From Niveispirillum lacus (GTDB lineage: Bacteria; Pseudomonadota; Alphaproteobacteria; Azospirillales; Azospirillaceae): 64,000 bases of DNA. The stretch is taken from contig NZ_NOXU01000029.1 in assembly GCF_002251795.1 (NCBI RefSeq), positions 1 through 64,000 of the forward strand, in the 5' to 3' direction. Positions within the stretch are counted from its first letter, which is position 1, and every line of letters begins with the position of its first letter. The notes below the pieces were generated by a model that was given only the letters and a program-made list of their open reading frames with translations, did no database searches and was not told where the DNA came from. Made by a program: the position numbers and the translations under genes. Of the stretch, positions 48,163 through 58,244 are shown in pieces.

Positions 48163-49566
48163 TCAGGCCAGCCGCAGGCCCAGCCAGCGGCGGGCGACCG
48201 GCACCTGTCGCAGGATGACCAGGTCGATCAGGGCCACCAGGATGACCGAGGCCCCCAGCAAGGGCAGGAACAGGGCAAAACCCAGCAGGATCATCCCCAT
48301 CACCGCCGGACTGCCCTTCAGGCGCAGCGGCGGCGGCGCCCCCAGCGCGCCGGCCGGGCGACGTTTCCACCACATCACCGCCCCGCTGACCGACAAAAGG
48401 ACAAGACCCAGGGCAGCGACAACGCCCAGTGCCTGGTTGACCCAGCCGAACAACTGCCCCTCATGTGCCGCGATGCCGATGCCGACCACCCGGTCGATAA
48501 CATGCCGGTCACCGAAATCTTCCCGCCGGACCATGGTACCGGTGGACCCGTCCAGGTCGATGGCGACGCGGTTGGGCCGGTTGGCTGTCATCGACCGCAC
48601 AGCCCAGTTTCCGCCCACGCTGGCCGGCAGGTTGATCAGCACCGGCGCGGCCAGATTCAGTGGCGTGACCCTGGCCACCACCTCTGTCAAGCTGACAGCG
48701 CCAACCATCATATCATCCATGGACAGGCCGGCATGATGCATTCCATCGGCTTCTGCATGATCATGGGCGTCATGGCCCGCCCGCTCGGCGCGGCGGCTGG
48801 TGGTCCAGTCCTGCTGAACTGCCGCCGTGCCGGTGGCCTTGCGCACCGTTTTAAAGGCTTCTCCCCATACGGATGCCCAGGGCAGACCAGTCAGCAGCAG
48901 GAACAGGGCCAGGAACGACACCCACAGTCCCACCACGGCATGCAGGTCGCGCCAAAAGGTCCGCCCGCCCGCCGTCAACCGGGGATAAAGCACGCCCGCC
49001 CATCCCTGCTGACCGCGTGGCCACCAAAGGTACAGGCCGCTGACCACCATAACGATACCCCAGCAGGCGGCAAGCTCCACAAACAGCGACCCATTATCGC
49101 CCAGCAGCAATTCACCATGGAACTTCTTGATCTGCTGCATCAGGCGGTCTTCCTCCCGGATCTTGTGCAGCACCTCCAGCGACTGGGGATGCACATAGAC
49201 CCGCCACACCGCCCCCTGCCCATCCCGCACCAGGACGCGCACCGCATCATCTGCCTCCTCCGGCAGGATGTAGGTGCGCAAGGTGCCATCTGGCACGGCC
49301 GCGAGGGCGGCCAGTGCCTGCGCGTTGGCATCCGCCGCCGGCCCAGTCAGGACCAAATGGTCATAGGGCCGGTCGATGAACGCCTCCACCTGCGGCTTGA
49401 ACAGGTAAAGCGCACCGGAAATGGCCAGGGCAACGATAAAGGGCACGCAGAACAGGCCCGCATAAAAGTGCCAACGCCAAATGGTCCGGTAATCCAGCCA
49501 TCCTTTGGCCGAAAGAGCTTTGCCCGGCCCTGTATCGCCGGATGACTTGGTCGACAGGTCCGTCAT
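48163..49566 (-). CDS. PepSY-domain membrane protein, probable metal reductase partner of the TonB receptor
   Basis: 467 residues with four main membrane helices and PepSY-type periplasmic loops. The N-terminus has YRTIWRWHFYAGLFCVPFI, then FHGELLLGDNGS, YLWWPRG, FWRDLHAVVGLW and AAHEGQLFGWVNQALG: the conserved histidines of the PepSY-TM family, which may bind haem. A His/Asp/Met-rich loop (GHDAHDHAEADGMHHAG at 264-280, then MDDMM) suggests metal binding. The family often reduces iron or copper at the inner membrane. It is 5 bases downstream of the TonB receptor and third gene of the DUF2946 operon. Confidence 0.88.
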   Translation of the reverse strand: MTDLSTKSSGDTGPGKALSAKGWLDYRTIWRWHFYAGLFCVPFIVALAISGALYLFKPQVEAFIDRPYDHLVLTGPAADANAQALAALAAVPDGTLRTYILPEEADDAVRVLVRDGQGAVWRVYVHPQSLEVLHKIREEDRLMQQIKKFHGELLLGDNGSLFVELAACWGIVMVVSGLYLWWPRGQQGWAGVLYPRLTAGGRTFWRDLHAVVGLWVSFLALFLLLTGLPWASVWGEAFKTVRKATGTAAVQQDWTTSRRAERAGHDAHDHAEADGMHHAGLSMDDMMVGAVSLTEVVARVTPLNLAAPVLINLPASVGGNWAVRSMTANRPNRVAIDLDGSTGTMVRREDFGDRHVIDRVVGIGIAAHEGQLFGWVNQALGVVAALGLVLLSVSGAVMWWKRRPAGALGAPPPLRLKGSPAVMGMILLGFALFLPLLGASVILVALIDLVILRQVPVARRWLGLRLA

Positions 49567-49570
49567 GGCG

Positions 49571-51865
49571 TCAGCCCTTCCATTTCAGTTCAAGTGTGAA
49601 GGTGCGTTGCGGATAGGGGTGGAAGACCCAGGCCTTGTCATTGCCGATATTGTCGACACCGACACTGATCTGCGTCTGGCTTGTCACATCCCAGGAGAGT
49701 TTTGCATCAAAGATCATCAGCTCTGACATGTAGCCATAGGTATCGCCGCGTTGCGTACCTTCCAGATTGGTGTTCGGGCGCGACGCATAACGCCAGCCGG
49801 TAGAGATTTGCCAATCCGGTGCAAACCGGTAGCGGGCGTTGCCGTTCAGCCGCCATTTGGGGATACGTGGGAACTGCACCCCCTCAGAGGCCGGCACCGA
49901 CCGGTTGCGTACCGTCTGTGCGTCGATCCACGCGGCGTTAAAATCAAGGTCCAGCCCCTGGATGCCGCCAAGATTCGCCGCCTCAACGATCCCCTCCACG
50001 CCCCACTGACGCACGATGTCGATGTTTTTAAAAGAGGAGGTGACAATGCCGAACTGGTTGAAACCCTGCTGGTTGAAAATCGCATCCTCAACCCGCTGAT
50101 AGAAAATGCTGCCCGTGAAGCGGATATCATCAAAGGCCCGGCGCAGCATCAGGTTGGCATCGCGCGACTTTTCCGGTTTCAGATTGGGATCGAAGCTGTT
50201 GATGTCAAAATTGCCATTGCCGTCCAGACGCCCCTGAAACAGTTCCGCGACCGTGGGAAAGCGGGTGGCGGTCGCCAGGCTCACCTGCCCGACCCAATCA
50301 CCCGGCAGGTCAATGTGGAGACCAGCGGACGGATTGACTGCGGTATCACTGCGATCCGTGTAGGACTGATAGCGCGGTGTACCGGAAACGCGGCTGCCAA
50401 TGCGCCCGTCAAACGCCCGCCAGTGATCAACACGCAGACCACCGGTCAGTTTGACTGCCGGCGTTACCTGCCAGGCATTATCGACAAAGGCGCCCAGTTG
50501 CCGGGACCGGCCGCCGGTGCCTGTGGTGAAAATCGGTGTGGCCCCAGTACGCCAATTACTGACGCCATAGATGGTCTGATCGGTTTCATACAGGCTGCTG
50601 TTGAACCCGATAGCCAGTTCATGGTCGCCCAGCGTGCGCTCCACCTGCCCATCCCCAGTCCACCAGCCGGTATCCCCCTGGCGTGTGTCAGTGCCAAGGG
50701 TGCTGTTGATCCCGTTCAGATAGCCGGTCGATGTCCGGGCGCGCTGCTTGTCGATGATGAAGCGTGACAGGTTCAAGCTGGCCTGCCAGTCGCCCACTGG
50801 CCCCTCCAGTTTCAGCCCCCCCAGGATTTCCCGCCGTTCGGTTACCGACAGGTTGATAGCGGGCAAGGTGAATTGCCGCCCATCCACCGTGACCCGGCCG
50901 GTAAAGACCGGATTGCCAGCCGCATCCCGCAGGTAGGTGGTGGGACTGGTACCGTCATATTCGCTGGTCCAGAGCACGGCCAACAGAGCGGCATTCCAAC
51001 CATCGCCGAAATCATACCCGATGCGGCCACGCAACTGGTCCTGTGTGGTGTCCTCAACCGTGAAAGCACCAGAGACCGGCGTTTTGGTGATCAGGTCCGG
51101 GTCGGTGACAGCCCCGGTCACAAGGGTTGATGCCGCCGAACCCGTGGCAGGTGTCAGTTGATAGAATTGCTGCGGATGGCCCTGGTTCTCCAACCGACGG
51201 TAGGAAAGGCGGGCGCTCCACGGTCCATCGTCCTGTTTCCAACCGAAACCGGCCTCCCCGGTATAGCCATCGAAATTCCGGTCCGTGCCGTACTGTTTAT
51301 AGGGCTGCACGAAGTACTGTGCCGTGGCAAAAGCTTCCACACCGTCCTGCGGGGGCTTGGTGGTGATGGAGATGATGCCACCCATCGAATTGCCCGGATA
51401 GCGGGACGAATAGGGGCCATAAACGATATCGAACTGCGCCACTTCGCCAGGACCGACCACACCCCATTTGGGCGGAAAGCCGAAACTGTTGCCCAGCAAA
51501 TTGGAAACGGTGAACCCGTCGACCTGCACCAGCGAACGGGCTGATTGCGTCGAATGGGTGCCACGGAAACCGGGAACGGCATTGGCATCACCGATGAAGC
51601 GTTTGCGCACGAAGAAGTTCGGCGCATATTTCATCAGGTCTTCGACATTCACGGCATTGATGGCGGCAAAATGCTCGGCACCTAAGGAAACAGACAGGCC
51701 GCGCGGCACGATGGTGATGGGTACATCACGCTGGCCGATGACAATCACCTCCTGGATGGGGGTGGCTTCGGCGACCTGGGATTCCTGACCAAAGGCAGGC
51801 GTGGCAAAGGCGACAAGGGCAACCGAAGCCGCCAGGCTTCGGGCGCGAAAAGGCGTGCGGGGCAC
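49571..51865 (-). CDS. TonB-dependent receptor, probable copper receptor
   Basis: 764 residues from the GTG at 51865, which has GGAGGA nine bases upstream; no ATG fits a signal peptide. The signal peptide ends at TPAFGQ. IQEVIVIGQRD is the TonB box region. Plug motifs are NVEDLMKYAPNFFVRKR, SARSLVQVDGFTVSNLLG and YGPYSSRYPGNSMGGII, and the last strand ends RTFTLELKWKG. Operon context (DUF2946 before, PepSY after) parallels the copper-repressed bfrG operon of Bordetella pertussis, so copper or a copper complex is a likely substrate, but this rests on context. Confidence 0.92.
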   Translation of the reverse strand: MPRTPFRARSLAASVALVAFATPAFGQESQVAEATPIQEVIVIGQRDVPITIVPRGLSVSLGAEHFAAINAVNVEDLMKYAPNFFVRKRFIGDANAVPGFRGTHSTQSARSLVQVDGFTVSNLLGNSFGFPPKWGVVGPGEVAQFDIVYGPYSSRYPGNSMGGIISITTKPPQDGVEAFATAQYFVQPYKQYGTDRNFDGYTGEAGFGWKQDDGPWSARLSYRRLENQGHPQQFYQLTPATGSAASTLVTGAVTDPDLITKTPVSGAFTVEDTTQDQLRGRIGYDFGDGWNAALLAVLWTSEYDGTSPTTYLRDAAGNPVFTGRVTVDGRQFTLPAINLSVTERREILGGLKLEGPVGDWQASLNLSRFIIDKQRARTSTGYLNGINSTLGTDTRQGDTGWWTGDGQVERTLGDHELAIGFNSSLYETDQTIYGVSNWRTGATPIFTTGTGGRSRQLGAFVDNAWQVTPAVKLTGGLRVDHWRAFDGRIGSRVSGTPRYQSYTDRSDTAVNPSAGLHIDLPGDWVGQVSLATATRFPTVAELFQGRLDGNGNFDINSFDPNLKPEKSRDANLMLRRAFDDIRFTGSIFYQRVEDAIFNQQGFNQFGIVTSSFKNIDIVRQWGVEGIVEAANLGGIQGLDLDFNAAWIDAQTVRNRSVPASEGVQFPRIPKWRLNGNARYRFAPDWQISTGWRYASRPNTNLEGTQRGDTYGYMSELMIFDAKLSWDVTSQTQISVGVDNIGNDKAWVFHPYPQRTFTLELKWKG

Positions 51866-51931
51866 GGCAAATTCCTCCGGCGACCGGACCCACGCCTGTA
51901 AATGTCTCAGGCGGGTGGTGCCAACTATGGA

Positions 51932-51967
51932 TTTCCTGGGATGGTTAGGATCAGCAAGCCCAGGAAA
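51932..51967 (-). promoter_or_regulatory. Hairpin straddling the DUF2946 stop codon
   Basis: A perfect 9-bp inverted repeat, TTTCCTGGG (51932-51940) and CCCAGGAAA (51959-51967), with an 18-base loop. On the mRNA the 5' arm lies in the last codons of the DUF2946 gene, two bases after the Pro-Pro of the RAPP motif, and the stop codon (51953-51951) is in the loop. No U tract follows, so it is not a Rho-independent terminator. A ribosome halted at RAPP would cover the 5' arm. A role in copper control of the operon is inferred. Confidence 0.6.
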
Positions 51968-52361
51968 GCGGCGGCGCCCGCGCGCCCAGCGTCGGACCGC
52001 ACCACAGGCGGCGACGCCGTAAAGGTGTGAAGGAAGAACGGATAACCGCATCCAGCACCGCCGGCAGCAACAGCGCCAGCAGCAAAAGGACCGGGCCTAG
52101 AAGGGTCATACCCATAAAGGGACAAAGGCCCTGATGGGCGGTATCAGCGGGGGCCGCACCATCGCCATCCGCCCCATCCATCTGGATGCTGGCCGATCCG
52201 ACGCTGGTACAGATCACCAGCCAACCCTCGCCATTGTCCGGATTGAGGTTGGGCATGTAGCCGCCGGGGATCATGCCCCGCAGCAGCAAGGCAAGCAGCA
52301 GGGTCCACGGCGCCACTTGCCGTGCCATGACCTTGAAGACGGACAAAATCCCCCTGCTCAT
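51951..52361 (-). CDS. cruR: DUF2946 protein, CruR-type copper-responsive leader
   Basis: 136 residues. An N-terminal membrane segment (APWTLLLALLLRGMIPGGYM) carries the DUF2946 motif RGMIPGGYMPN. Then come VICTSVG (Cys51), HQGLCPFMGM (His76, Cys80, Met83, Met85), a second membrane helix, and the C-terminus GARAPPLSWAC. RAPP (128-131) is the translation-arrest motif of CruR, the DUF2946 leader protein of B. pertussis, where copper binding to CXXC relieves arrest and causes Rho termination before the TonB gene. Here CXXC is replaced by CPFM. The gene is followed 85 bases later by the TonB receptor. Confidence 0.88.
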   Translation of the reverse strand: MSRGILSVFKVMARQVAPWTLLLALLLRGMIPGGYMPNLNPDNGEGWLVICTSVGSASIQMDGADGDGAAPADTAHQGLCPFMGMTLLGPVLLLLALLLPAVLDAVIRSSFTPLRRRRLWCGPTLGARAPPLSWAC

Positions 52362-52556
52362 ACCGGTGTAATGAACCCAAGTACCAGGCGCGTCAATGGC
52401 CCCCTGGTGCGACGCAATGGCCACCCTCCCTTTCCTCTGCTGCATGTCGGGGAAAGCATCTCGGTGGCGAGGTCGGGCATTCATCACACCTGACCTTGGC
52501 ACAGCCTCTACCCGCACCGGTGGCAGGCTCTGTTAGCTTTCTGCTAAACTGCCGAC

Positions 52557-53450
52557 ATGCAGGACCCCCTACCGCCCGAACCATTTCCCTGGCCCTTTGA
52601 CGGTGACACCTACCGTATGACCATGGGCCTGCGCAGTCAGGACCCGGCCACGTGGCTTGCGCCCGATGCGGGCTGGACGGCGCAGCTAACCGAACGGTCG
52701 AACCGGCTGCGTAATCAGAAATGGGATGTGTTGGCCCTGATGCCAGAGGGGCTTGACGCAGCCGGCGAGTGTCTGACCCTGGTCAGCACCCATCTCACCA
52801 ACCATTTTCCGGGCTGGTTTCAGCGCCAAGCCGACGGGATCCACAGTTCGGTGACCGGTACAACGCTGCGAATGGCAGATTTTGATCACCCGCTGCACAT
52901 GGCAGCCCATCTGCAGCCCGACGATCTGTGCCTGATGACCCCATCGGCGGGGGGCTGGCGGTTGACGGGCGGGGCGGTTTGTTTCCCTTCCCACTGGTTC
53001 CTGCCGCATATGCTGGGCAAGCCGTTGCCCGGTATCCACCGGCGGGTTCCCAGCTATGCCACCACCCTGGCCACACCCGTGGACCGGTTCTTCGACATGC
53101 TGGCCGCCGGCCGCACGGTCTGGCGGGTCAACTGGACCCTGGCGGACGACCCGGCACTGTTTCAGCCCGGCACCGTGGCGCATAAACCGGTTGATGCCAG
53201 CATCAACGACAGCAATGGCGCAGACAGGTTGTATTTACGGGTGGAGCGGCAAACGCTGACCAAACTGCCGGTCAGCGGCGCCGTGATCTTCACCATCCGT
53301 ACGCATATGCGGCCGCTATCCGCTCTAAACGGGGCGCAACGGTATCAGTTCGCTTCCATCCTGCGGAGCCTTCCCGATGCTGTTGCGGCCTATAAGGGGC
53401 TGCAACGGACAGGGGCGATGGCCTTGGCCGCTCTGGATGACGTCAGATAA
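52557..53450 (+). CDS. DUF3445 protein, haem-dependent N-demethylase-like
   Basis: 297 residues of the DUF3445 family, which includes the alpha subunit of haem-dependent oxidative N-demethylase (HODM). Segments seen are [63 protein letters not shown] and [27 protein letters not shown] alpha binds haem in a PAS-like domain. The reductase and ferredoxin partners of the full enzyme are not adjacent. Divergent from the DUF2946 operon; overlaps the convergent thioesterase gene by 8 bases. Confidence 0.85.
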
Positions 53451-54960: not shown

Positions 54961-55872
54961 ATGGATCGCCTGACCGTCAATACCAGTCCCCGTCAACTGA
55001 TTGACGGTGCGCCCGCTCTTTCCGCCCTGGGGTGGGGCATGTGGCGGTATCACGGCGATGATCTGGGCGCTGCGACGGCCCGCTGCATGGCAGCCCTGGA
55101 GGCCGGGATCACCCTGTTCGACACAGCCGATATCTACGGTTTCGACCATGAACATGGGTTTGGTGCAGCGGAAACGCTGTTCGGCCGGGTTCTGGCCGCC
55201 AATCCTGGTTTGCGTGGCCAGATTGTGCTGGCCAGCAAGGGCGGTATTCAACCACCGATCCCCTATCATCAACGCGGCGAGCAGTTGATTGCGTGTTGCG
55301 AGGCCTCGCTGCGTCGGCTGAATGTCGACTGCATCGATCTTTATCAGGTCCACCGCCCGGATTTGCTGGCCCACCCGGCGGAGGTTGCGGCGGCCCTGGA
55401 CAAACTGCGCCAACAGGGGAAGATCAAGGCGGCCGGCGTCTCCAACTACACCCCGGCGCAGGTGGCGGCCCTGGCGGCACATCTGCCGTTCCGGCTGCTG
55501 TCAGTCCAACCGGAATTCTCCCCCCTGCATATCGCTCCCCTGTTTGACGGGGTGCTGGATCAGGCCTTGGAACGGAACTTGACGGTGCTGACATGGTCGC
55601 CGCTGGGGGGTGGCGGACTGGTGCGTGGTGCGGCAGATGCCCGCACCGCCCGTGTCGCCGCCGCCCTGGACATCATTGCCCATCGACAGGGCACCACCCG
55701 CGCCGCCGTTGCCTATGCCTGGGCCATGGTCCATCCTGCCCGCCCTATCCCGCTGGTCGGCAGCCAGACGCCTGACCGCATCCGGGAAGCTGCGGATGCC
55801 CTCAAGGTGGAAATGACGGGGGCCGACTGGTATGGCGTCCTGGTCGCGGCCCGTGGTACCCCAATGCCCTAG
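54961..55872 (+). CDS. Aldo/keto reductase
   Basis: 303 residues, TIM-barrel AKR. The catalytic tetrad is visible: Asp and Tyr in LFDTADIYG, Lys in VLASKGG, His in LYQVHRPDLL. The NADPH site is in SNYTPAQVAAL and LVGSQTPDRIREAADAL. The start follows GGAA at close spacing. It overlaps the convergent copA by 4 bases. Substrate unknown. Confidence 0.92.
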   Translation: MDRLTVNTSPRQLIDGAPALSALGWGMWRYHGDDLGAATARCMAALEAGITLFDTADIYGFDHEHGFGAAETLFGRVLAANPGLRGQIVLASKGGIQPPIPYHQRGEQLIACCEASLRRLNVDCIDLYQVHRPDLLAHPAEVAAALDKLRQQGKIKAAGVSNYTPAQVAALAAHLPFRLLSVQPEFSPLHIAPLFDGVLDQALERNLTVLTWSPLGGGGLVRGAADARTARVAAALDIIAHRQGTTRAAVAYAWAMVHPARPIPLVGSQTPDRIREAADALKVEMTGADWYGVLVAARGTPMP

Positions 55873-58244
55873 ACCCCTGGCCGCCAGCGCCGCAGCAGCA
55901 GGGCATTGGCAACGACACAGACACTGGATGCTGCCATGGCCGCCCCGGCCAGCATGGGGTTCAGCAGCCCGGCCATGGCCAGCGGTACACCAATAATGTT
56001 GTAGATGAAGGCCCAGAACAGGTTCTGGCGGATTTTGGCAACGGTTCGGCCTGAGATCGCGATGGCATCCGCCACAAGCGCCGGGTCGCCGCGCATCAGC
56101 GTAATGCCCGCCGCCCGCATCGCCACATCGGTACCGGTGCCCATGGCGAAGCCAATATCAGCAGCAGCGAGGGCCGGAGCATCATTGATACCATCACCCA
56201 CCATGGCCACCACCCGGCCGCCTTTGCGCAGATCGGCCAGCGCATCGCCCTTATCCTGGGGCAGCAGTTCGGCCAGCACCTCCTCTACCCCCAGGGATGC
56301 CGCGGTCGCCGCTGCCGCTCCGGCATTGTCCCCGGTCACCATCACCGTCCGGATGCCCAATGCCTTCAGCCGCACGATGGCTGCCGGCCCAGTCTGTTTG
56401 ATCCGGTCACCAAAGGCGATCAGTCCCAACAGCATCCCATCGGCCACCAGATAGGACAGGGTGCGGCCCTGCGCCGTCAGGCCGCGTGCCACGGGCGCCA
56501 GATCCCGGATATCGATGCCGCGTTCTGCCATCAGCCGGGCATTGCCCAGCAGCAAATGCTGCTCCGCCACCTGTCCTTCCACACCCAGGCCCGGCAACGC
56601 ACGGATCGCATGGGCCGCCGGCACAGCCGGCATGGCGTCACACACTGCCGCCGCCAGCGGATGTTGACTGCCCACCTGCAGCGCGGCGGCAAGGCGCAGA
56701 ACCTGGATGCGGTCGCCCCCCGCCACCGGCTGCACCGCCACCACCGCCGGTTTGCCTTCGGTCAGGGTCCCGGTCTTGTCAAAAGCCACCACACCGATAT
56801 CCCGCGCCCGCTCCAGCGCCTCCGCGTCGCGGATCAGAATACCGGCACGCGCCGCGACCCCGGTCCCCACCATGAGCGCGGTGGGTGTGGCCAAGCCCAG
56901 GGCACAAGGACATGCGATGACCAGCACCGCGACGGCGTTAATCAACGCCGTTTCCACCCCGGCCCCTGCCAGCAGCCAGCCGGCCAGGGTCAGCAGCGCC
57001 AGCGCCAGGATCACCGGCACAAAAATGGCGGACACTTTGTCGACCATGCGCTGCACTGGCGCCTTTCCCGCACTCGCCTGTTCGACAAGCCGGATGATCC
57101 GCGACAGCGTACTGTCGGCGCCCAACGCCCCCGCGGTCACGGCAATGAAGCCATCCAGGTTCAATGACCCGCCGGTGACAGCCGCCCCCGGCCCCTTGGC
57201 TACCGGCAGGCTTTCCCCGGTCAGCATGCTTTCATCCAGGTGGGTTGTGCCATCCAGGATCTCACCATCGACGGGCACCTGTTCACCCGGCCGCACCAGG
57301 ACCACATCGCCGCGCTGCAACTGGGCGATCGGCATGGTGACCTCCGCCCCGTCACGACGGACCCGCGCCAACAGGGGCCGCAGCGCCATCAGCGCTTCAA
57401 TGGCCGCACCGGTTTTGCGCTTGGCCCGTGCTTCTAACCATCGGCCCAGCAGCAGCATCGCGATGATCACCGATGCCGCCTCATAATAGAGGTGGGGCGC
57501 ATGCCCGGCATGGGCGTCGAGCCACATCCAGCCGGACAGGCCCCACGCCGCCAAGGTGCCCAGCACGACGAGCACATCCATGCTGGCCGTACGGTGTTTC
57601 AAGGCGTTCCACGCTCCGGCATAGAAGGGCCAGCCCAGCCCGAACTGTACCAGACTGCCCAAGATAAACTGCGCCCAGGCTGGAAGGGGCGGACCGCCCA
57701 GCATCGGCAGCACCAGCGGCATGGACAGGATCAGGGCAAGGGCCGCCCGTGTTCCTTCGCCCAGACCCGGTTCTGACCTGGCGGTAATGGCGGTCGGGAT
57801 ATCCGCAGAGGCTGTTGGCTCCGCCGCCGCCGCGACGCCATAGCCGGCATTATGCACAGCGGCGGTCAGGTCATCATCGCTGACCTCCGCCACATCAATC
57901 AGGGCGATACTGGTGGCCTGTGAGATTTTGACATCAATCACGCCGGGTACAGCCCGCAGCGCCTTTTCCGCCTTGCCGACACAGGCTGCACAACGCAGGC
58001 CGGTCAGCGTCAGGCGTTTGGCCTGCACCACTGGTTCAAACCCGGCATTGGTGATTGCAGTGACCACTGCCACCGGAAGTTTCGGGCCGGCAGCGTCGCC
58101 AGGCGTGACCAGAACGCGCTGCGACGACAAGTTGACACAGACCGACGCCACACCCGGCAGCGCGGCCACAGCCTTTTCAATCCGCCCCGCACAGGAGGCA
58201 CAACGCATGCCCTGCACGGGCAAAGACAGGCTTGCAGACGACAT
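55869..58244 (-). CDS. copA: Copper-translocating P1B-type ATPase
   Basis: 791 residues. Two N-terminal heavy-metal domains carry Cys15/Cys18 (GMRCASCAGR) and Cys85/Cys88 (GLRCAACVGK). The transmembrane metal motif is Cys445-Pro-Cys447 (ACPCALGLATP), with helix-7 YN and helix-8 MSS residues (FIYNIIGVPL, AAMAASSVCVV) typical of Cu+ ATPases. The actuator TGESLP, the phosphorylation DKTGTLTEG and the nucleotide-binding residues are present. It exports Cu+ from the cytosol. It has a CueR-type operator upstream. Confidence 0.97.
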   Translation of the reverse strand: MSSASLSLPVQGMRCASCAGRIEKAVAALPGVASVCVNLSSQRVLVTPGDAAGPKLPVAVVTAITNAGFEPVVQAKRLTLTGLRCAACVGKAEKALRAVPGVIDVKISQATSIALIDVAEVSDDDLTAAVHNAGYGVAAAAEPTASADIPTAITARSEPGLGEGTRAALALILSMPLVLPMLGGPPLPAWAQFILGSLVQFGLGWPFYAGAWNALKHRTASMDVLVVLGTLAAWGLSGWMWLDAHAGHAPHLYYEAASVIIAMLLLGRWLEARAKRKTGAAIEALMALRPLLARVRRDGAEVTMPIAQLQRGDVVLVRPGEQVPVDGEILDGTTHLDESMLTGESLPVAKGPGAAVTGGSLNLDGFIAVTAGALGADSTLSRIIRLVEQASAGKAPVQRMVDKVSAIFVPVILALALLTLAGWLLAGAGVETALINAVAVLVIACPCALGLATPTALMVGTGVAARAGILIRDAEALERARDIGVVAFDKTGTLTEGKPAVVAVQPVAGGDRIQVLRLAAALQVGSQHPLAAAVCDAMPAVPAAHAIRALPGLGVEGQVAEQHLLLGNARLMAERGIDIRDLAPVARGLTAQGRTLSYLVADGMLLGLIAFGDRIKQTGPAAIVRLKALGIRTVMVTGDNAGAAAATAASLGVEEVLAELLPQDKGDALADLRKGGRVVAMVGDGINDAPALAAADIGFAMGTGTDVAMRAAGITLMRGDPALVADAIAISGRTVAKIRQNLFWAFIYNIIGVPLAMAGLLNPMLAGAAMAASSVCVVANALLLRRWRPGV

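What the first reader, a model, noticed from the sequence alone, without database searches (positions are those of the whole stretch)
51951..52361. CruR-type copper leader with a RAPP arrest motif but CPFM instead of CXXC
The gene order DUF2946 - TonB receptor - PepSY protein is that of the B. pertussis bp2923-bfrG-bp2921 operon, where the DUF2946 protein (CruR) is itself the copper sensor: copper binds CXXC on the nascent chain and relieves arrest at C-terminal RAPP. Here RAPP is intact at residues 128-131, but the sensor motif reads CPFM (Cys80, Met83) within HQGLCPFMGM. A His/Cys/Met site could still bind Cu(I), with different affinity or metal choice. A CXXM sensor would be a variant of this new regulator class.
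Basis: partly seen in the sequence, partly recalled or inferred. Interest (0 to 1): 0.82.

Follow-up and report, generated by a model that had tools for sequence, protein, structure and literature searches.

The report
Copper leader peptide lacking CXXC sensor
A short leader gene ahead of a metal-uptake operon belongs to a widespread branch of probable copper-sensing arrest peptides that keeps one methionine and two far-apart cysteines instead of the usual CXXC copper motif, so the part that senses copper probably works differently from the one studied example.

Summary
In detail: a 136-aa DUF2946 ORF (Pfam 35.8 bits) with C80PFM83 and R128APP131 heads a TonB receptor-PepSY_TM operon in a Niveispirillum-type genome. 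The "CXXM sensor" reading does not hold. Among 205 relatives (93 clusters at 60% identity) position 83 is Ala in 73 clusters, Met in 3, never Cys, and His76 is not conserved. What never changes across the clusters is G34, M36, C51, C80 and the two arrest prolines. The leader belongs to a separate subfamily ("GxM class") without CXXC. In 190 CXXC leaders (134 clusters) no Met column is conserved and the C51 equivalent is present in 78% of clusters. Of 40 scanned neighbours of GxM leaders, 13 are copper-linked (PCu(A)C, SCO, CopC/CopD, YcnI, MbnP/MauG); this genome's second GxM leader precedes PCu(A)C-SCO. C80 to the arrest proline is 50.4 ± 0.8 residues, M36 to C51 15 ± 1, while C51 to C80 varies from 21 to 79. 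Best reading: a CruR-like copper-responsive arrest leader with site M36/C51/C80. Copper response, metal ligation and stalling are inferred, not shown. Rho termination and SD masking were examined; neither was established.

The parts
51951..52361 (-). Leader ORF, 136 aa, DUF2946, GxM class (no CXXC)
   Evidence: profile A2 138.6 bits in the own genome
52254..52256 (-). Met36 codon of the GxM motif (R28-G-M-I-P32-G-G34-Y-M36-P), predicted metal ligand
   Evidence: Met in 205 of 205 sequences, 93 of 93 clusters; role inferred
52209..52211 (-). Cys51 codon (VICT), predicted metal ligand; probable equivalent of the semiconserved Cys of CXXC leaders
   Evidence: 205 of 205; 78% of 134 clusters in the CXXC class
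52122..52124 (-). Cys80 codon, place of the first Cys of CXXC
   Evidence: 205 of 205; C80 to P130 50.4 +/- 0.8 residues, n=204
52113..52115 (-). Met83 codon, place of the second Cys of CXXC; variable in relatives
   Evidence: A73 S8 G6 M3 T2 and one other letter among 93 clusters, never C
51969..51980 (-). RAPP arrest-type motif (R128-P131), five residues before the stop
   Evidence: R128 in 187 and P130-P131 in 204 of 205 relatives; TGPP, HAPP or IGPP in some others
51932..51967 (-). Hairpin over the leader's last codons and stop (TTTCCTGGG / CCCAGGAAA) that a ribosome stalled at RAPP would overlap
   Evidence: one compensated pair among close orthologues, mismatches in L003 and L005, another sequence with a hairpin at the same place in L007/L009; not significant class-wide
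51866..51950 (-). Leader-receptor intergenic region, 85 nt (85-101 nt in 8 of 14 loci examined), no intrinsic terminator found
51874..51878 (-). Ribosome-binding sequence GGAGG of the receptor gene (GTG start at 51865)
   Evidence: found in 8 of 14 loci; the script found none in the other 6
49571..51865 (-). TonB-dependent receptor, 764 aa
48163..49566 (-). PepSY_TM protein, 467 aa

Best explanation
The ORF is a regulatory leader of the CruR kind from a separate subfamily. Translation stalls at R128-A-P-P near its C-terminus, and the stalled ribosome keeps the downstream receptor and PepSY_TM genes expressed. When copper, probably Cu(I), is present, the nascent chain binds it through Met36, Cys51 and Cys80. 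This closes the variable loop between C51 and C80 just outside the ribosome tunnel and pulls the chain free. The ribosome then finishes and the downstream genes are shut off. Met83 is only a small or hydrophobic residue. Shown here: the subfamily, its invariant residues, the nearly fixed C80-to-arrest-proline distance and copper-gene neighbours. Inferred: metal binding, stalling, the direction of regulation and how the downstream genes are switched.
For: DUF2946 match and operon order. G34, M36, C51, C80, P130 and P131 are unchanged in 93 of 93 clusters of 205 relatives; C51 was never a selection criterion. Of 54 best loci brought by profile A2, 52 have G34, M36, C51 and C80 and none of those has Cys at 83, while the 2 that lack GxM both have CXXC. 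In 190 CXXC leaders the GxM pattern occurs once, no Met column exceeds 15%, and the C51 equivalent is in 78% of 134 clusters. C80 to P130 is 50.4 +/- 0.8 and M36 to C51 is 15.0 +/- 1.0, but C51 to C80 ranges from 21 to 79. 13 of 40 scanned neighbours of GxM leaders are copper-linked: CopC, CopD-PCuAC, MbnP, MauG, YcnI, PCuAC, SCO1; the host's second GxM leader precedes PCuAC and SCO1. A profile of CXXC leaders (A5) finds no CXXC leader in the host genome at E 0.1. The leader tree needs 2 changes for the GxM class, while GxM-headed receptors need 9 on the receptor tree, so both leader classes head related receptors. Published: CXXC and RAPP of CruR are required, and C51S of CruR is tolerated (PMC9426467).
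Against: No experiment on any GxM leader was found. CruR works with its residues 5-44 replaced (PMC9426467), so a site that uses M36 would be a departure. AlphaFold confidence is too low to place the three residues together (mean pLDDT 65.2, pTM 0.37), and the model matches no solved fold. The C>G stretch expected for Rho termination is not exceptional: 22% of random segments reach the window's value. 14 of the 40 scanned neighbours match no family. CruR's own arrest had not been demonstrated directly, according to PMC10987492. Homologues were gathered by profile searches that favour conserved motifs, and the weakest matches of profile A2 are CXXC leaders.
Confidence: 0.55

Rival explanations
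1. One reading: Cys80 and Met83, perhaps with His76, form a CXXM copper site that replaces CXXC locally.
For: The motif is present, and Met is a possible Cu(I) ligand (general knowledge).
Against: Met83 is in 21 of 205 sequences and 3 of 93 clusters; close orthologues with the same operon have CPYL or CPFA. His76 is in 32 of 205.
Confidence: 0.05
2. The invariant residues serve export or redox state, not metal binding: the GxM stretch marks the end of a signal anchor, and C51-C80 form a disulfide, so the leader reports envelope redox or export state.
For: The motif directly follows the N-terminal helix (3-30) in the low-confidence model. Two invariant Cys at variable spacing could form a disulfide.
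Against: Copper-linked neighbours in several lineages. The distance from the Cys to the arrest motif is within one or two residues of that of the CXXC class.
Confidence: 0.2
3. CutF-like output: copper-dependent slowing at the proline motif opens an RNA hairpin that hides the receptor's ribosome-binding site or start codon, so copper would act on translation initiation rather than on Rho termination.
For: A hairpin covers the last leader codons and the SD is predicted mostly paired. Masking the stalled footprint raises predicted start-codon accessibility by more than 0.05 in 4 of 8 loci (L027, L164, L168, L167). The intergenic gap is short, 85 nt. No intrinsic terminator was found.
Against: Predicted SD accessibility rises in 2 of 8 loci, falls in 4 and stays in 2 (window 0.30 to 0.20, L027 0.18 to 0.26); start-codon accessibility falls in the window itself, 0.05 to 0.01. 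Class-wide hairpin excess is not significant, p 0.09. A copper-induced copper importer would be unexpected.
Confidence: 0.12
4. The leader has lost sensing and only sets a constant level of expression.
For: The second Cys of the known sensor is absent.
Against: M36, C51 and C80 are kept in 93 of 93 divergent clusters, which decay would not give.
Confidence: 0.05

Closest known systems
CruR (bp2923) of Bordetella pertussis, DUF2946 copper-responsive upstream regulator
   Same: DUF2946 family, C-terminal RAPP, about 50 residues from Cys80 (place of the first Cys of CXXC) to the arrest proline, TonB receptor plus PepSY_TM downstream, N-terminal export-type segment.
   Different: No CXXC. M36 and C51 invariant in the subfamily, whereas CruR's C51 is dispensable and its residues 5-44 replaceable (PMC9426467). 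Intergenic gap 85 nt against 162 nt. Rho dependence untested.
CutF of Rhodobacter capsulatus and CutF-like proteins
   Same: Exported leader, cysteine site, C-terminal proline motif, copper-related downstream gene.
   Different: CutF uses CxxxC and copper enhances a stalling-like process that raises CutO (PMC9973294, passages and section 11). The window has no CxxxC, and SD unmasking was not consistently supported.
RQH-type arrest peptides (SecM, ApdA/ApdP and relatives)
   Same: C-terminal R-A/G-P-P type motif; several motif forms seen in the class (RAPP, RGPP, TGPP, HAPP) were queries in PMC10987492 (passages).
   Different: Those studied sit mainly upstream of secA, secDF or yidC; the GxM class sits upstream of receptors and copper genes.
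CrtA/CrpH copper acquisition proteins (BfrG, bp2921)
   Same: Same gene order and protein families (PMC12914433, first part and passages; PMC13038864, passages).
   Different: Relation of the window receptor to CrtA could not be tested: the deposited CrtA structures (9RVQ, 9RVX) were not among the hits.

Membership tests
DUF2946 (PF11162) | Full-length match above the curated cut-off | tested here: met
   35.8 bits against 23.7, profile 2-117 of 117
CruR-type copper leader | CXXC copper motif about 45 residues before RAPP | tested here: not met
   CPFM; no Cys at position 83 in any of 205 relatives
CruR-type copper leader | C-terminal RAPP at conserved spacing | tested here: met
   RAPP 128-131, 44 residues after the motif; C80 to P130 50.4 +/- 0.8 in 204 relatives
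CruR-type copper leader | First gene of a copper operon | tested here: met
   TonB receptor and PepSY_TM downstream; copper-linked genes in operons of the same class. Copper use of this very operon is not shown
CruR-type copper leader | Rho-dependent termination between leader and receptor | tested here: inconclusive
   C>G stretch 0.17-0.26 in 8 loci, but 22% of random segments reach 0.17 and 1.9% reach 0.26; no intrinsic terminator
CruR-type copper leader | Copper relieves arrest and represses the operon | not testable with these tools
   needs a reporter
GxM class (defined here) | G34-x-M36, C51, C80, PP near the C-terminus | tested here: met
CutF-like leader | CxxxC motif | tested here: not met
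   sequence
CutF-like leader | Hairpin that masks the SD and opens on stalling | tested here: inconclusive
   hairpin present; SD accessibility up in 2, down in 4, same in 2 of 8 loci
RQH-type arrest peptide | Ribosome stalls with the third motif residue in the P-site | not testable with these tools
   needs toeprinting
CrtA receptor family | Membership of the CrtA sequence cluster | tested here: inconclusive
   only solved relative by sequence is PhuR, E 1e-10; with a profile PhuR, colicin I receptor, YncD and a PQQ transporter; CrtA itself was not available for comparison

The most novel reading that the evidence does not exclude
DUF2946 arrest leaders comprise a second sensor class in which a nascent chain binds copper through one Met and two distant Cys (M36, C51, C80) across a loop of variable length. 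Sensing needs the N-terminal part that CruR can do without, and only the distance from C80 to the ribosome's active site is fixed.
Probability: 0.5. Interest if true: 0.75.

Novelty: new variant of a known kind. Interest (0 to 1): 0.6.

Why it matters
CruR is described by its authors as the first characterised upstream ORF that answers to a transition metal, and its CXXC as invariant (PMC9426467). A large branch without CXXC, in front of the same sorts of genes, suggests that the sensing part can be rebuilt while the arrest part and its distance are kept. That makes a direct test possible: which residues sense the metal, and whether the nearly fixed 50-residue distance works as a ruler for pulling the chain off the ribosome. 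It also warns that searches for copper leaders by CXXC, or by the Pfam model alone, miss members such as the second leader of this genome.

Tried and rejected
CXXM as a conserved sensor was rejected. A conserved His ligand was rejected: no column has more than 30% His among the cluster representatives. Rho-type C>G stretch: present but not beyond chance for the window. Stop-codon hairpin as a class feature: mean z -0.89 against -0.50 in a control stretch of the same genes, 12 of 40 against 7 of 40 below -1.5, p 0.09; for CXXC leaders 46 of 190 against 26 of 190, p 0.03; kept only as a local feature of close orthologues. SD unmasking by the stalled ribosome: up in 2, down in 4, unchanged in 2 of 8 loci. 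Intrinsic terminator or sigma-70-type promoter: none found in 51700-52600. Known RNA family: none in 51500-52600. AlphaFold model: low confidence and no fold match. CrtA identity of the receptor: could not be settled. Leader protein against plasmids: no match.

Limits and rows dropped. The profile that gathered the 275 unique ORFs was seeded with ORFs that end in R[AG]PP and have a Cys at the sensor place, so that set leans towards both. Of the 275, 25 had no R/K/Q/H-[AGS]-PP end and 4 no Cys and were left out of class counts. Of 56 'single-Cys' ORFs, 40 were GxM and 16 were not: by my reading one is a misread CXXC (L141), three are CPLG, three CC, two CxxxC and seven CCxxxC. Of 268 hits only the 120 listed were read. 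Profile A2 matched 46 of 385 and 26 of 398 genomes, but its weak matches include CXXC leaders (for example L330, L331, and the place of L062 and L082), so these are upper bounds for the GxM class in those samples at that threshold; only the 54 loci returned were read. L310 (truncated), L330 and L331 (CXXC type) were left out of the 205, and one sequence out of the spacing counts. The leader tree was built with the trait's own columns left in and has few columns; the receptor tree holds some near copies. Receptor labels come from a model grown from the window's own receptor, so 30 of 49 (all single-Cys) against 42 of 118 (CXXC) with a receptor within 500 nt is biased towards its relatives. The 40 scanned neighbours were chosen, not drawn at random, hold a few repeats of one gene, and have no matching scan for CXXC leaders as a control.

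Full report
OBSERVATION. Window 51951-52361 on the minus strand encodes 136 residues with C80PFM83 and R128APP131. Pfam assigns DUF2946 at 35.8 bits, above the 23.7 cut-off and over almost the full profile. Downstream on the same strand lie a TonB-dependent receptor (49571-51865) and a PepSY_TM protein (48163-49566). The leader stop and the receptor's GTG start are 85 nt apart, with GGAGG before the start; 8 of 14 loci examined in one script have such an arrangement with gaps of 85-101 nt, and the script found no such SD in the other 6. The genome is Niveispirillum-like (names). Of the 11 held genomes of the genus, 9 keep leader, a receptor of the same clade and PepSY_TM in this order; G002 lacks a labelled PepSY_TM gene and G001 has a receptor of another lineage.

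WHAT POSITION 83 DOES. In the 36-row alignment of nearest relatives, Cys51 and Cys80 are invariant and position 83 is M, I, L, A or S. The receptor and PepSY_TM genes follow CPYL and CPFA leaders in the same genus just as they follow CPFM. So CPFM is a local form of a position that has no fixed letter.

A SUBFAMILY WITHOUT CXXC. I collected DUF2946 ORFs from loci of the genus, family, class and phylum samples. A profile seeded from ORFs with an R[AG]PP end and a Cys at the sensor place gave 275 unique ORFs: 190 with CXXC, 56 with a single Cys at that place, 25 without a recognisable RxPP-type end and 4 without the Cys. Forty of the 56 share a second motif near the N-terminus, G-x-M-P or G-x-M-L. 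A pattern for that motif hits 1 of the 190 CXXC leaders (L107, by chance as I read it). In an alignment of 31 diverse members the only invariant columns are G34, M36, C51, C80, R128, P130 and P131. A profile search of public proteins gave 268 hits, of which the 120 listed were read; with those and the 31 they make 154 unique sequences, all with G34, M36, C51 and C80. The same profile run over genomes matched 46 of 385 in the class sample and 26 of 398 in the phylum sample; the weak end of these lists includes CXXC leaders, so the true GxM numbers are lower. 54 loci were read: 52 have G34, M36, C51 and C80 and no Cys at 83, and the other two, L330 and L331, lack GxM and carry CXXC. Together, after leaving out L310, L330 and L331, there are 205 sequences in 93 clusters at 60% identity. 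G34, M36, C51, C80, P130 and P131 are unchanged in all 93 clusters; position 83 is A73, S8, G6, M3, T2 and one other letter, never C. In the CXXC set (190 sequences, 134 clusters) both CXXC cysteines are unchanged, a Cys in one upstream column is present in 78%, and no Met column exceeds 15%. C51 was never used to choose sequences. Cys80 and Met36 were used to choose the first 40; for the database and genome hits neither was required, though a profile favours what its rows share.

SPACING. Over 204 sequences, C80 to P130 is 50.4 residues (sd 0.8, range 47-52), M36 to C51 is 15.0 (sd 1.0, range 12-17), and C51 to C80 is 32.0 (sd 6.2, range 21-79). In the CXXC class the first Cys is 48-51 residues before the R in 178 of 190, most often 50; in the single-Cys ORFs it is most often 48, 33 of 56. 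For CruR, five added residues in this stretch cost most of the copper response, while one or two did not (PMC9426467, part 3 of the text).

COPPER CONTEXT. I scanned 40 chosen neighbours of GxM leaders against Pfam. Thirteen gave copper-linked families: CopC, a CopD-PCuAC protein, MbnP and MauG (L174), MbnP and MauG (L245), MauG (L268), PCuAC (L129, L329, L334), YcnI-type DUF1775 with PCuAC (L140), YcnI (L294), and SCO1 right after a leader in Alcaligenes faecalis (L036). Four gave a receptor plug domain, 14 no family, and the rest other families such as DUF2244. The copper links of SCO, PCuAC, YcnI, CopC and MbnPH-like genes are those listed for CruR operons in PMC9426467. The host genome's second GxM leader (G000:C10:62041-62388, minus) is followed by PCuAC and then SCO1. 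The CXXC-leader profile finds no CXXC leader in the host genome at E 0.1; its one hit there is the window leader, at 46 bits against 139 with the GxM profile. Of four plasmid relatives of the receptor that I opened, Novosphingobium (51% identical) has a GxM leader, Komagataeibacter (28%) a CPLC leader found only weakly (E 0.003), and in Variovorax (34%) and Pseudoalteromonas (31%) no leader was found; the Pseudoalteromonas receptor-PepSY pair lies beside PCuAC and SCO genes.

EVOLUTION. On a quick tree of 250 leaders the GxM class needs two changes, and one origin is not excluded; few columns, with the trait's own columns left in, make this tree weak. On a tree of 90 receptors that have a leader, the 28 GxM-headed ones need nine changes and lie among CXXC-headed ones. 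The two leader classes have therefore been exchanged in front of related receptors, which suggests the same regulatory job.

HOW IT LIKELY WORKS. In the CruR model (PMC9426467, parts 1-4 of 7 read), stalling at RAPP protects the transcript from Rho, and copper on CXXC releases the ribosome and shuts the operon off. PMC10987492 (passages) reports that RAPP-like peptides stall with the third residue in the P-site, and notes that arrest by CruR itself had not been demonstrated. By analogy I propose that M36, C51 and C80 take the place of CXXC, with the variable C51-C80 loop closed by the metal and C80 held at a nearly fixed distance from the active site. The N-terminal half of the site would make this class depend on a part that CruR does not need. 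The model from AlphaFold puts short strands at 35-37 and 48-52 and starts a long helix at 81, but confidence is low, and no solved fold matched.

OUTPUT MECHANISM. A hairpin covers the last leader codons and the stop in close orthologues, with one compensated pair but also mismatches in L003 and L005, and a different sequence in L007 and L009 forms one at the same place. Across the class this excess is not significant. Masking the stalled footprint opens the receptor's SD in 2 of 8 loci and closes it in 4; start-codon accessibility rises by more than 0.05 in 4 of 8 but falls in the window. The C>G stretch starting near RAPP is 0.17-0.26 in eight loci, but 22% of random segments reach 0.17 (6% reach 0.24, 1.9% reach 0.26). 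No intrinsic terminator was found. Rho and SD masking both remain open.

WHAT IS KNOWN. Ten papers in the library name DUF2946; I opened five of them, PMC9426467 in parts 1-4 of 7 and PMC9973294, PMC4176598, PMC9431628 and PMC10502375 in passages (two whole sections of PMC9973294). CruR's paper calls CXXC invariant. PMC9973294 sorts CutF-like proteins into 29 clusters with distinct putative metal sites (section 10); its supplementary logos were not readable here and may contain this class. I saw no description of a Met-Cys-Cys pattern in what I read, and the listings (20 of 162 listed) showed no paper on one. Caulobacter DUF2946 genes next to czr and zntA efflux genes (PMC4176598, table passage) are a reminder that not all DUF2946 leaders need answer to copper.

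VERDICT. A new variant of a known kind: the family, arrest motif and operon type are known, while the sensor part is of a class I could not find described. The specific CXXM claim is wrong; the general hunch that the sensor differs is right and applies to a whole subfamily.

Noticed in passing
G000:C10:62041-62388 (-), L334/L337: A second GxM leader in the host genome, not reported by the Pfam DUF2946 search, followed by PCu(A)C and SCO1 genes.
   Followed up: yes
L170, L174, L032 (Niveispirillum relatives): Clusters of three leaders on one strand with receptor genes and, in L174, CopC, CopD-PCuAC, DUF2244, MbnP and MauG genes; up to 8 matches of the GxM profile in one genome of the genus, not each checked.
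   Followed up: partly
L090-L093, L097, L201, L209, L212, L233: DUF2946 ORFs, several just upstream of a CXXC leader, that end in PRASP-type sequence instead of RAPP; a further group (L112, L186, L189, L216) ends in AAPP. RASP was among the arrest-motif queries in PMC10987492.
   Followed up: no
L132, L236, L237, L242, L249, L252, L270; L064, L079, L120; L139, L143: Other non-CXXC sensor forms among DUF2946 leaders: CCxxxC, CC and CxxxC.
   Followed up: no
L195, L197, L182, L221: Four DUF2946 ORFs with no Cys at the sensor place and an NPRASP end.
   Followed up: no
window 55869-58244 (-): P-type ATPase with two HMA domains, a likely copper exporter, about 3.5 kb from the leader.
   Followed up: no
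window 52557-53450 (+): HODM_asu-like protein (haem-dependent oxidative N-demethylase family), divergent from the leader.
   Followed up: no
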